Assembly: GCF_030505395.1 (NCBI RefSeq)
Contig: NZ_CP130044.1
Location: 1 to 64,000, forward strand
Direction: 5' to 3'
Length of the DNA stretch: 64,000 nt
DNA from: Asticcacaulis sp. ZE23SCel15
GTDB lineage: Bacteria; Pseudomonadota; Alphaproteobacteria; Caulobacterales; Caulobacteraceae
Notes under the pieces: generated by a model
The model's input: only the letters and a program-made list of their open reading frames with translations
Database searches by the model: none
What the model was told of the DNA's origin: nothing
Translations under genes and position numbers: made by a program
In this document: in pieces, positions 53,779 through 56,278 of the stretch
How positions within the stretch are numbered: the stretch's first letter is position 1
Layout of the letters: the number at the start of each line of letters is the position of its first letter

Positions 53779-53897
53779 GATCATCTCCGGCACTGCGGTA
53801 TTATTAAGCGCCTAACATGGCCCTGCGCCTTAAAGCAATCAAGATGGCCACATATCCCCCTTGACGGTTTTATAGAAAATACGGCATAGGAAACCTA

Positions 53898-54007
53898 CTC
53901 ATCGAGACCAGCCGAGGGACAGGCCCATTGACGCTGGGGCAACCGCTTTTCCATTCGTGGGATCGCATGGTGCCAACTCCTGCGAAGATTTATCTTCGAC
54001 AGATGAG
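53898..54007 (+). promoter_or_regulatory. SAM-I (S-box) riboswitch aptamer
   Basis: A 110-nt leader matching the S-box core in order: P1 5' strand CTCATC (53898-53903), GAGGGA, GGCCC, TGA, GGCAACC, then GGTGCCAACTCCTGCG, a hairpin (CGAAGAT-TTATCTTCG) and GACAGATGAG, whose GATGAG (54002-54007) closes P1 perfectly. It lies ~110 nt before the metX-like ATG. The expression platform is not obvious: AAGACG...CGTCTT (54011-54016 with its partner near 54040-54045) could form an alternative stem, but no U-run follows, so control may act on translation. SAM binding should shut down methionine synthesis. Confidence 0.9.
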
Positions 54008-54116
54008 AGGAAGACGCCACGCGCCGTCTGCGGCAGAGCCGTCTTATCTTCTCACCCGTCATGATAATTTTCTGGTCGCGATTGAGCCCGTTTTGCTTGA
54101 TGCCCATATGGATGAC

Positions 54117-55100
54117 ATGACCGCGACTTTGGACCACTTGCCCGACCTGACCGGCGTTGATGTGACAGCCCCGATCCCTGACGATTTCTTACTCGCCAGC
54201 GGGCAAAGGCTGATGCAATCCCATGCCATCGGCCGCGTTTACGGCCCAGCGGGTGCGCCTATGGTGGTCGCCATCGGTGGCATTTCAGCCAGCCGCGTCC
54301 TGTTCCAAAAGGAAGACACCACCGACACCGCCCCCGGCTGGTGGGAAGGGGTTGCGGGCCCCAATCAGGCGCTCGATCTCAACCACTGGCGGGTCTTAAG
54401 CATCGACTTTGCCCCGTCCCTGCCCGCCGACCGGGTCTATACCATCTCCACTCACGATCAGGCACGGCTGGTGAAACTGGTGCTGGATCAGATCGGCGTG
54501 GATGAGGTTCACGATTTTATCGGCGCATCATACGGCGCCATGATTGGCCTTGCCTTTGCCGAGCTTTATCCCGATTTCGTCAAGCGCCTGTGTGTGATCT
54601 CCGCCGCCCACCGCGCCCACCCGATGGCCACCGCCATGCGCGGCCTGCAACGGCGCATCCTGATGTTCGGCAAAGACACCGGTCATGAGCGCGAAGCCAT
54701 ATCGCTGGCGCGGCAACTGGCCATGACCACCTACCGGTCTGAGCAAGAGTTTCTGGAACGCTTTGACGGCCTGGCCCCTGATGTCGCCGGTGAAAACTAT
54801 ACCGTCTGCAATTATCTGCGGGCGCGCGGCGATGCCTATACGGCGTCGGACGTCAACCGCTGGGTATCGCTGTCAGATTCGCTCGATCGGCACCGCGTTG
54901 ACCCAAAGAACATCAAGGCCAAGGTTTTTCTGGCCGCCGTGCCTACCGACCGGCTGGTGCCCTATGCCGACATGGTGGCGCTGTATGAAAGCCTGTCAGA
55001 CAGCGTATTCATTGACCTGCCCTCTCTATATGGCCACGATGCGTTCCTGAAAGAGATCGAACGCGTGTCCGATATCGTCAAACACTCGTTGGAAGACTGA
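54117..55100 (+). CDS. metX: Homoserine O-acyltransferase, MetX-like
   Basis: Alpha/beta-hydrolase enzyme that activates homoserine as its O-acetyl or O-succinyl ester. It has 327 residues from ATG 54117. The nucleophile elbow is GASYGAMIG; the acid and histidine are in PTDRLVPYADM and LYGHDAFLKE; TAPGWWEGVAGPNQALD is typical of MetX. The open frame extends through the riboswitch to 53928, so the first start is not credible; ATG 54108 and ATG 54003 (inside the P1 3' strand) are alternatives. It lies 5 nt before metB. Confidence 0.85.
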   Translation: MTATLDHLPDLTGVDVTAPIPDDFLLASGQRLMQSHAIGRVYGPAGAPMVVAIGGISASRVLFQKEDTTDTAPGWWEGVAGPNQALDLNHWRVLSIDFAPSLPADRVYTISTHDQARLVKLVLDQIGVDEVHDFIGASYGAMIGLAFAELYPDFVKRLCVISAAHRAHPMATAMRGLQRRILMFGKDTGHEREAISLARQLAMTTYRSEQEFLERFDGLAPDVAGENYTVCNYLRARGDAYTASDVNRWVSLSDSLDRHRVDPKNIKAKVFLAAVPTDRLVPYADMVALYESLSDSVFIDLPSLYGHDAFLKEIERVSDIVKHSLED

Positions 55101-55105
55101 TTACC

Positions 55106-56278
55106 ATGTCGAAAAAAGACTACCTCAAAGACGCCAAGCTGGCGACCCGCGTCATCAATATCGGCATTGATACGGATACGGCGCACGGTGCGGTCATGCC
55201 GCCGATCTACCTGTCGTCGAACTATACGTTTGAGGGCTTTGGCAAGAAGCGCACCTTTGACTATGCCCGTTCCGGCAACCCGACGCGCGAAGTTGTGTCT
55301 GAGGTTATTGCGGAACTCGAAGGCGGCATAGGCGCGGTCATGACCGCGTCCGGCATGGCGGCCATTGACCTGCTGTGGCAGCCGCTTGAGAAAGGCAACA
55401 ACCGCGTGGTCGCCCCCCATGATTGCTACGGCGGCACCCAGCGTCAGTTGAATGCCCGCGCTAAACAAGGTTTGATTGACCTCGTCTATGTCGATCAGGG
55501 CGATGACGCGGCGGTGCTTAAGGCCCTGTCGCAGCCGACGGCCATGTTGCTGATTGAAACCCCGTCTAATCCGCTGATGCGGGTGGTGGATCTGCAAAAA
55601 CTGATCGATCTCGGCCACAAAGCCGGGGCCAAGGTCGCGGTTGACAACACCTTCCTGTCGCCCGCCCTGCAAAATCCGATCAGGTTCGGCGCGGATTTTG
55701 TGGTCCATTCGACCACCAAATATATCAATGGCCATTCGGACGTGATCGGCGGGGCGCTGGTTTGCACGACCGCAGAAGACCTGACGCTTTACCGCTGGTG
55801 GGCCAATTGCGTCGGCTCGACCGCGCCCGCGTTCGATTCGTATCTGACCTTACGCGGCGTGCGCACCCTGTTTGTGCGCATCAAACAGCAGCAGCAGTCG
55901 GCGCAGGCCGTGGCCGAATATCTGGAAAGCCATCCGGTGGTCTCAAAGGTCTTTTATCCCGGCCTGAAATCCCACCCGCAGCACGATCTGGCCGCCCGTC
56001 AGCAGGCCGGATTTGGCGCGATGATGAGCTTTGAGCTTAAAGGGGGTTTAGATGCCGTCAAAGCCGTTCTGGATGTGGTTGATCTGTTTTCACTGGCCGA
56101 ATCCTTGGGCGGGGTCGAAAGCCTGATCGTCCATCCGGCCTCCATGACCCACGCCGCTATGTCACCGGAAGCGCAAGCTACGGCTGGTATCACCGGCGGC
56201 CTGTTGCGTCTGTCGATCGGTCTGGAAGATGCGGATGATCTGATCAAGGCGCTGGAACGGGCGTTGTCGGTGGCCTAG
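55106..56278 (+). CDS. metB: Cystathionine gamma-synthase / Cys-Met PLP enzyme
   Basis: PLP enzyme of 390 residues that condenses the activated homoserine with cysteine (or sulfide). The PLP lysine lies in VHSTTKYINGHSDVIGGA; other marks are YARSGNPTREVV, EGGIGAVMTASGMAAI, VDNTFLSPALQNP and SLGGVESLIVHPASMTHAAM. Close spacing to the metX-like gene (5 nt) and the shared S-box point to methionine synthesis. Cystathionine gamma-synthase is favoured over lyase by context; sequence alone does not decide. Confidence 0.93.
   Translation: MSKKDYLKDAKLATRVINIGIDTDTAHGAVMPPIYLSSNYTFEGFGKKRTFDYARSGNPTREVVSEVIAELEGGIGAVMTASGMAAIDLLWQPLEKGNNRVVAPHDCYGGTQRQLNARAKQGLIDLVYVDQGDDAAVLKALSQPTAMLLIETPSNPLMRVVDLQKLIDLGHKAGAKVAVDNTFLSPALQNPIRFGADFVVHSTTKYINGHSDVIGGALVCTTAEDLTLYRWWANCVGSTAPAFDSYLTLRGVRTLFVRIKQQQQSAQAVAEYLESHPVVSKVFYPGLKSHPQHDLAARQQAGFGAMMSFELKGGLDAVKAVLDVVDLFSLAESLGGVESLIVHPASMTHAAMSPEAQATAGITGGLLRLSIGLEDADDLIKALERALSVA

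What the first reader, a model, noticed from the sequence alone, without database searches (positions are those of the whole stretch)
53898..54120. S-box (SAM-I) riboswitch controlling metX-metB in an alphaproteobacterium
All conserved SAM-I blocks occur in order and P1 closes with 6 perfect base pairs (53898-53903 with 54002-54007). SAM-II and SAM-V are the classes usually discussed for alphaproteobacteria; SAM-I is mainly Gram-positive, so a clear S-box here is notable. The expression platform is unusual: no U-run terminator, and an ATG (54003) lies inside the P1 3' strand in frame with metX.
Basis: partly seen in the sequence, partly recalled or inferred. Interest (0 to 1): 0.7.

Follow-up and report, generated by a model that had tools for sequence, protein, structure and literature searches.

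The report
SAM-I riboswitch before metX-metB
A bacterium of the genus Asticcacaulis carries a genuine, textbook-shaped RNA sensor for S-adenosylmethionine in front of two methionine-making genes; the same sensor and gene pair occur together in many relatives, and the translation start most likely lies further downstream than first thought.

Summary
In detail: Rfam RF00162 (SAM-I/S-box) scores 83.0 bits at 53896-54009 (cut-off 44.4, E 4.2e-18), with the 6-bp P1; it is the genome's only SAM-I match. The genes are a PRK08775-type metX and metB. The setting is less exceptional than supposed: 93 of 299 family genomes have SAM-I, the same 93 that have this metX type; 77 of the 80 nearest MetX loci and 9 of 9 outside the class have it too; Xanthomonas has a tested counterpart. 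SAM-II passes its cut-off in 55 of 142 class genomes but 0 of 119 family genomes. ATG 54003 as metX start fails: a P1 ATG is in frame and open in 15 of 79 loci, and in near relatives 54003-54116 evolves as RNA, not protein. The start is most likely ATG 54117, inside a 73-nt invariant block. Likeliest mechanism: translational repression, P1 competing with an anti-P1 helix and a downstream fold masking ATG 54117. This coupling is inferred and weakly supported by folding; a weak terminator-like hairpin, kept in 5 of 5 clade members, is the main rival.

The parts
53896..54009 (+). SAM-I (S-box) aptamer, RF00162 full length
   Evidence: 83.0 bits, cut-off 44.4, E 4.2e-18
53898..53903 (+). P1 5' strand CUCAUC
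   Evidence: pairs with 54002-54007
54002..54007 (+). P1 3' strand GAUGAG; holds ATG 54003, judged not to be the metX start
54004..54011 (+). anti-P1 helix, 5' strand UGAGAGGA (with 54012-54016 AGACG x 54040-54044 CGUCU); exclusive with P1
   Evidence: MFE fold; pairing probability 0.94 with the P1 5' strand held open, 0.01 with P1 forced
54047..54054 (+). anti-P1 helix, 3' strand UCUUCUCA
54030..54042 (+). hairpin between the two anti-P1 strands, followed by CUUAUCUUCU; weakly terminator-like
   Evidence: 1 found, shuffles 0.3 +/- 0.6; in 5 of 5 clade leaders, 0 of 20 other genus leaders
54058..54063 (+). candidate anti-AUG GUCAUG, complementary to 54116-54121 CAUGAC, which holds the start codon
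   Evidence: pairing 0.72 with P1 closed, 0.54 with P1 open; both strands lie in the invariant block 54055-54127
54074..54080 (+). stem A 5' strand GGUCGCG, alternative mask, pairs with 54122-54128 CGCGACU
   Evidence: 0.23 with P1 closed, 0.34 with P1 open; its only variable base, 54128 U to C in G068, turns G-U into G-C
54122..54128 (+). stem A 3' strand, first codons of metX
54117..55100 (+). metX, homoserine O-succinyltransferase type (PRK08775); most likely start ATG 54117
   Evidence: NF006449 340 bits, cut-off 296; N-terminus as in relatives; codon pattern begins here
55106..56278 (+). metB, cystathionine gamma-synthase (TIGR02080)
   Evidence: 563.4 bits, cut-off 504.55

Best explanation
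A SAM-I riboswitch in the 5' leader of the metX-metB operon of an Asticcacaulis species; it lowers methionine synthesis when SAM is plentiful, most likely at translation initiation. Shown by comparison: the aptamer, its co-occurrence with this metX-metB pair, a conserved non-coding leader that runs to about ATG 54117, and complementarity of the P1 3' strand with 54047-54054. Inferred: SAM closes P1, which frees 54040-54063, so that 54058-54063 (or stem A 54074-54080 x 54122-54128) masks the start codon at 54117. Without SAM the anti-P1 helix 54004-54016 x 54040-54054 forms and the ribosome site opens, perhaps with help from the ribosome, co-transcriptional folding or another factor.
For: RF00162 at 83 bits. 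The same 93 of 299 family genomes carry SAM-I and PRK08775 metX (lists compared by eye). SAM-I lies upstream of metX in 77 of the 80 best MetX loci (the query alignment was built from loci with SAM-I) and in 9 of 9 loci outside the class. In the window and four near relatives 54003-54116 has 5 of 114 variable columns, by codon position 2/3/0, plus indels that change the frame in G089; metX 54117-54476 has 75 of 360, by position 12/9/54 (Fisher p 1.1e-5 for rate, 0.0027 for the third-position share). The longest invariant run, 54055-54127, covers the start codon and ends one base short of the end of stem A (it ignores one inserted base in G089). Anti-P1 pairing is 0.94 with the P1 5' strand open and 0.01 with P1 closed. 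In 11 of 25 genus leaders the P1 3' strand finds a better partner downstream than in at least 95% of shuffled leaders. The Xanthomonas counterpart acts mainly at translation and hides SD and AUG (PMC7270179, sections read).
Against: Equilibrium folding hardly separates the two states at the window's start site: opening cost 4.2 (P1 closed) against 4.1 kcal/mol, start codon unpaired 0.14 against 0.23; stem A is even more probable with P1 open (0.34) than closed (0.23). Partner-swap tests show no significant covariation: anti-P1 1946 of 5000 permutations as good, anti-SD/SD 463 and 383 of 5000. In the window itself 7 of 60 shuffled leaders pair as well with the P1 3' strand, and G068 breaks one anti-P1 pair. 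A weak terminator-like hairpin is kept in all five clade members. The Shine-Dalgarno match before 54117 (GGA 54110-54112) is poor. No SAM-binding or expression data exist here.
Confidence: 0.7

Rival explanations
1. Transcriptional control in the window's clade: with P1 closed, hairpin 54030-54042 followed by CUUAUCUUCU acts as a weak intrinsic terminator, or the leader admits Rho; anti-P1 is the antiterminator.
For: One terminator-like site, found in 5 of 5 clade leaders; anti-P1 uses 54040-54044 and 54047-54054 and would break it, the classic SAM-I layout; start-site opening is not predicted to switch in the window.
Against: 5-bp stem and interrupted U tract, found in shuffles at 0.3 +/- 0.6. 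None of the other 20 genus leaders and 4 of 54 leaders outside the genus have such a site by the same rule; expected from base shuffles 1.0 and 1.6. The Xanthomonas counterpart has no Rho-independent terminator and acts mainly at translation, with a weak effect on a transcriptional fusion (PMC7270179). Rho was not tested.
Confidence: 0.27
2. One reading: metX starts at ATG 54003 inside the P1 3' strand, so that closing P1 hides the start codon directly.
For: The ATG exists, and a P1 ATG is in frame and open into metX here and in 14 further loci, 15 of 79.
Against: 64 of 79 loci lack an open in-frame P1 ATG, among them the near relative G089, where indels shift the frame. No codon pattern in 54003-54116 (2/3/0) against 12/9/54 in metX. 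MetX homology begins at residue 38 or later of the 365-residue reading in 18 of the 20 genus rows outside the window's clade (L038 and L042 begin earlier).
Confidence: 0.04
3. A decayed S-box: the aptamer is kept but the window lineage has lost the coupling after an insertion of about 12 nt between CCCGUC and UGGUC.
For: The insertion is visible in the five-genome clade; predicted opening energies are the same in both states for the window.
Against: The leader is much more conserved than the coding sequence (5 of 114 against 75 of 360) with a 73-nt invariant run; the aptamer scores 83 bits, within the range of the other family hits (64.7 to 91.4).
Confidence: 0.1

Closest known systems
SAM-IXcc, the met-operon SAM-I riboswitch of Xanthomonas campestris (PMC7270179; introduction, results and discussion read)
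   Same: SAM-I aptamer in front of a homoserine O-succinyltransferase gene and metB; no strong intrinsic terminator; model in which anti-SD and anti-AUG strands mask the start. There the SD stays masked without SAM; here the start codon is predicted to stay mostly masked with P1 open.
   Different: The third gene of the Xcc operon (hom) is not next here: the ORF at 56339 matches no NCBIfam family. tRNA-fMet sensing is untested here. The Xcc sequence itself was not in hand; six unnamed loci of one non-alphaproteobacterial family (L225-L230) have other platform sequences than the window.
RF00162 SAM-I (S-box) with a Rho-independent terminator, as in Bacillus yitJ (recalled, and PMC7270179)
   Same: Aptamer architecture; P1 as the switching helix.
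   Different: Those end in strong terminators; here only a weak terminator-like site.
SAM-II (RF00521) of other alphaproteobacteria
   Same: Same ligand and pathway, by PMC1273637 and PMC4239095 (passages seen).
   Different: Another fold; no match in this genome and over cut-off in 0 of 119 family genomes.

Membership tests
SAM-I riboswitch (RF00162) | Covariance-model score over the curated cut-off, full-length match | tested here: met
   83.0 bits against 44.4, model 1-108
SAM-I riboswitch (RF00162) | P1-P4 around the conserved core, with a closing P1 | tested here: met
   cmscan alignment, accuracy 0.93; P1 6 bp
SAM-I riboswitch (RF00162) | Located before methionine/SAM genes, conserved in relatives | tested here: met
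   metX-metB; 77 of 80 MetX loci; 79 of 88 SAM-I loci examined in the family have this metX downstream
SAM-I riboswitch (RF00162) | Selective SAM binding with a structural change | not testable with these tools
   needs in-line probing
SAM-IXcc-type translational SAM-I | Downstream homoserine O-succinyltransferase gene and metB | tested here: met
   NF006449 340 bits (cut-off 296) and TIGR02080 563.4 bits (cut-off 504.55)
SAM-IXcc-type translational SAM-I | Start site masked when P1 is closed, open when not | tested here: inconclusive
   start codon 0.14 against 0.23 unpaired; opening 4.2 against 4.1 kcal/mol
SAM-IXcc-type translational SAM-I | Binding of uncharged initiator tRNA to the anti-SD strand | not testable with these tools
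   needs a binding assay; not tested
Terminator-type SAM-I | Rho-independent terminator exclusive with anti-P1 | tested here: inconclusive
   one weak site, 5-bp stem, in 5 of 5 clade leaders and 0 of 20 other genus leaders
SAM-II (RF00521) | RF00521 score over cut-off | tested here: not met
   no match in G000; the search finds 55 of 142 class genomes over cut-off, while the control panel rang nowhere

The most novel reading that the evidence does not exclude
The order Caulobacterales holds an alphaproteobacterial lineage of SAM-I switches whose platforms change fast under a fixed aptamer. In the window lineage a new start-codon mask (54058-54063 x 54116-54121) has replaced the anti-SD helix seen elsewhere in the genus, and, as the site stays masked even without SAM, a second signal such as uncharged initiator tRNA is needed to open it.
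Probability: 0.12. Interest if true: 0.7.

Novelty: new member of a known kind. Interest (0 to 1): 0.35.

Why it matters
It qualifies the usual summary that alphaproteobacteria use SAM-II and Gram-positives SAM-I. In part of this order (93 of 299 genomes of the family) SAM-I controls metX, and in the genomes sampled it is present exactly where one type of metX is present, as if gene and sensor were one cassette; SAM-II was not found over its cut-off in the family. Most family genomes drawn (206 of 299) have neither this metX nor SAM-I, so their control is a separate question. Because the aptamer is constant while platforms differ, even within one genus, the set could serve to study how expression platforms are rebuilt.

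Tried and rejected
metX start at 54003: rejected. Start at TTG 54138 behind GGACCAC: considered because some genus members have GGAC-CAC before their ATG; rejected because G068 has neither. Start at ATG 54108: not excluded by conservation, but 54117 fits relatives' N-termini better (M plus seven residues, then PDL, as in L037).

Recent transfer from outside the class: not supported. In a MetX tree of 53 rows (51 different; a chosen part of the loci held) the nine rows from outside the class lie on one side of a branch (95/61, not starred). An older transfer or a common origin cannot be told apart, as the tree is unrooted.

Covariation as proof of the platform: not obtained. Excess complementarity to the P1 3' strand outside the genus: 0 of 48 loci had at most 3 of 60 shuffles as good, so the anti-P1 idea is not supported for them. 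In one search two genus rows (L039, L047) were anchored on a wrong ATGAG and L070 perhaps too; 6 of the 79 metX loci gave no row.

Plasmid spread: no match of 53890-54120 in the plasmid collection. Sigma-70 consensus scan: no promoter in 53780-54200.

Rows dropped: one search lists 102 SAM-I places; the window plus 87 were examined; 14, all of genus g3, were left out because their scores equalled or were close to those of places taken (their identity was not tested). Of these 88, nine have no metX of this type downstream, leaving 79. Searches over more than 40 genomes used stricter filters and scored only some first-look candidates.

Because the weak site is kept in the whole window clade, I raised the transcriptional rival to 0.27 and lowered the best explanation to 0.7.

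Full report
What is there. Rfam's SAM-I model (RF00162) matches 53896-54009 on the + strand over its full length with 83.0 bits (gathering score 44.4, E 4.2e-18); it is the only Rfam match over a gathering score in the window and the only SAM-I match in the genome. Downstream lie metX, of the PRK08775 homoserine O-succinyltransferase type (340 bits, cut-off 296), and metB (TIGR02080, 563.4 bits, cut-off 504.55).

Who has it. The closest named relatives by MetX are Asticcacaulis endophyticus and A. machinosus (95 and 94% identical). SAM-I is found in 93 of 299 genomes drawn from the family, in 4 of 22 genera; 25 of them, the window included, are of the window's genus (genomes without a match were only partly listed, so I do not claim that every genus member has it). 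It is found in 46 of 200 genomes drawn from the order, in two further families, but in only 8 of 385 drawn from the class, 7 over the cut-off. The six class hits that are not from this family, one of them below the cut-off, had no match to the window's MetX or MetB in the fetched stretch. Of the 14 control genomes only Bacillus subtilis, Thermus composti and Deinobacterium chartae rang; if the panel is that, it includes Caulobacter vibrioides.

A cassette. The 93 family genomes with SAM-I and the 93 of 299 with a PRK08775 metX over its cut-off are the same genomes (lists compared by eye). SAM-I lies upstream of metX in 77 of the 80 best MetX loci (20, 20, 20 and 17; missing in L203, L216 and L217). 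These 80 are the best of 562 candidates in a capped search, the query alignment was built from loci that carry SAM-I, and some are the same genomes as in the family draw, so this is no independent count. In a draw of 398 genomes of the phylum nine genomes outside the class have such a metX (eight over the cut-off), and all nine have SAM-I upstream. SAM-II, by contrast, is over its cut-off in 55 of 142 class genomes and in 0 of 119 family genomes, with two weaker matches. So where this metX is found in the group, SAM-I stands where SAM-II stands elsewhere; 206 of the 299 family genomes have neither SAM-I nor this metX. In a MetX tree the nine outside rows lie on one side of a branch (95/61), and 19 rows group together in which every row with a named family is Caulobacteraceae (97/92). 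One same-family genome falls outside that group: L211, whose contig has the length of that of G009, sits with L203 and a Hyphomonadaceae MAG. Descent is thus mostly, not wholly, in step with the family.

Where metX starts. The ATG at 54003 lies in the P1 strand GAUGAG. Of 79 metX-linked loci, 15 have a P1 ATG that is in frame with metX and open, 9 of the 25 in the genus (seven loci have no such ATG and count as no). In the window and four near relatives 54003-54116 has 5 variable columns of 114, by codon position 2, 3 and 0, and G089 has a two-base gap and a one-base insertion that break the frame; from 54117 on, 75 of 360 columns vary, by codon position 12, 9 and 54. The rates differ with p 1.1e-5 and the third-position shares with p 0.0027 (five variable columns are few). 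ATG 54117 gives MTATLDHLPDLTG, in length like MNAHTFSAPDLIG of L037 (some relatives are longer here). The longest invariant run is 54055-54127, 73 bases, leaving aside the one base inserted in G089. This is what one expects of a structured leader that reaches over the start codon.

How it may work. With the 5' strand of P1 held open, 54004-54011 pairs with 54047-54054 (probability 0.94) and 54012-54016 with 54040-54044 (0.95); with P1 closed these fall to 0.01 and 0.07. That is a switch on paper. Downstream, GUCAUG 54058-54063 can pair with CAUGAC 54116-54121, which holds the start codon (0.72 with P1 closed, 0.54 with P1 open), and GGUCGCG 54074-54080 with CGCGACU 54122-54128 (0.23 and 0.34, the wrong way round for a simple mask); the start codon is unpaired 0.14 and 0.23. 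The one variable base of stem A, 54128, changes a G-U to a G-C pair in G068. I infer translational repression, with closed P1 favouring the mask. The predicted difference is small: opening the site costs 4.2 against 4.1 kcal/mol in the window; over 25 genus leaders the difference ranges from -1.3 to 6.1 and is 1.0 or more in 11. Partner-swap tests gave no significant covariation. The Xanthomonas study found SD masked also without SAM and explained its opening by uncharged initiator tRNA (PMC7270179). Whether anything like that applies here is open.

The terminator question. One terminator-like site lies at 54030-54042 with CTTATCTTCT behind it. By the same rule it is found in all five genomes of the window's clade, in none of the other 20 genus leaders, and a site of some kind in 4 of 54 leaders outside the genus, against 1.0 and 1.6 expected from base shuffles. 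The stem has 5 pairs and the U tract is broken, so I hold it for the weaker option, but it is exclusive with anti-P1 and sits in the one clade whose start site is not predicted to switch.

Platforms differ. In the genus 24 of 25 leaders hold CUGGUC and 18 of 25 hold ACCGGAC within 26 bases before the ATG; the two can pair over the Shine-Dalgarno region. The window's clade of five is among the seven without ACCGGAC: about 12 bases are inserted between CCCGUC and UGGUC, and the start region is rebuilt. Outside the genus 0 of 48 leaders show an excess of complementarity to the P1 3' strand, against 11 of 25 within it (for the window itself 7 of 60 shuffles are as good). So the aptamer is kept while the platform changes.

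Known or new. SAM-I upstream of a homoserine O-succinyltransferase gene and metB is known and tested in Xanthomonas campestris (PMC7270179; sections read). PMC3766115 (passages) calls the SAM riboswitch present in diverse species of eight phyla beyond Firmicutes. PMC4239095 (passages) scanned proteobacteria including Caulobacterales for SAH, SAM-SAH and SAM-II riboswitches, and calls SAM-I widely distributed in Firmicutes. PMC1273637 (passages) describes SAM-II in alphaproteobacteria and SAM-I as predominantly Gram-positive. PMC2704228, PMC5756330 and PMC6230763 (passages) do not report SAM-I in this group in what I saw. My full-text searches listed no paper whose title or abstract start tells of SAM-I in Asticcacaulis, Brevundimonas or Caulobacterales; they cover open-licence papers only, most hits were seen as listings, and Rfam's own genome tables, which may well list such hits, were not seen.

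Verdict. Interest is moderate: the cassette shared in the order and the changing platforms are the points a specialist might not know.

Noticed in passing
This suggests SAM-controlled outer-membrane uptake of methionine or a relative of it. The search listed two papers, neither about this by title.
   Followed up: partly
L082 and L103; L071; L058: Other SAM-I copies lie in front of a MetN-like ABC ATPase with NIL domain (L082 tested; L103 looks alike), a Cys/Met PLP enzyme (L071), and, some 700 bases on, a luciferase-like monooxygenase (L058).
   Followed up: partly
L120-L125 (class genomes outside the order): SAM-I matches (39 to 74 bits, one below the cut-off) without a MetX or MetB match of the window's type in the fetched stretch; their target genes were not looked at.
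   Followed up: no
L203, L216, L217: Three MetX loci of this type without a SAM-I over the cut-off in the fetched stretch: possible losses or replacements of the sensor.
   Followed up: no
L220: A MAG contig titled Klebsiella pneumoniae carries a SAM-I-metX unit whose MetX lies on the alphaproteobacterial side of the tree; perhaps a mislabelled record.
   Followed up: no
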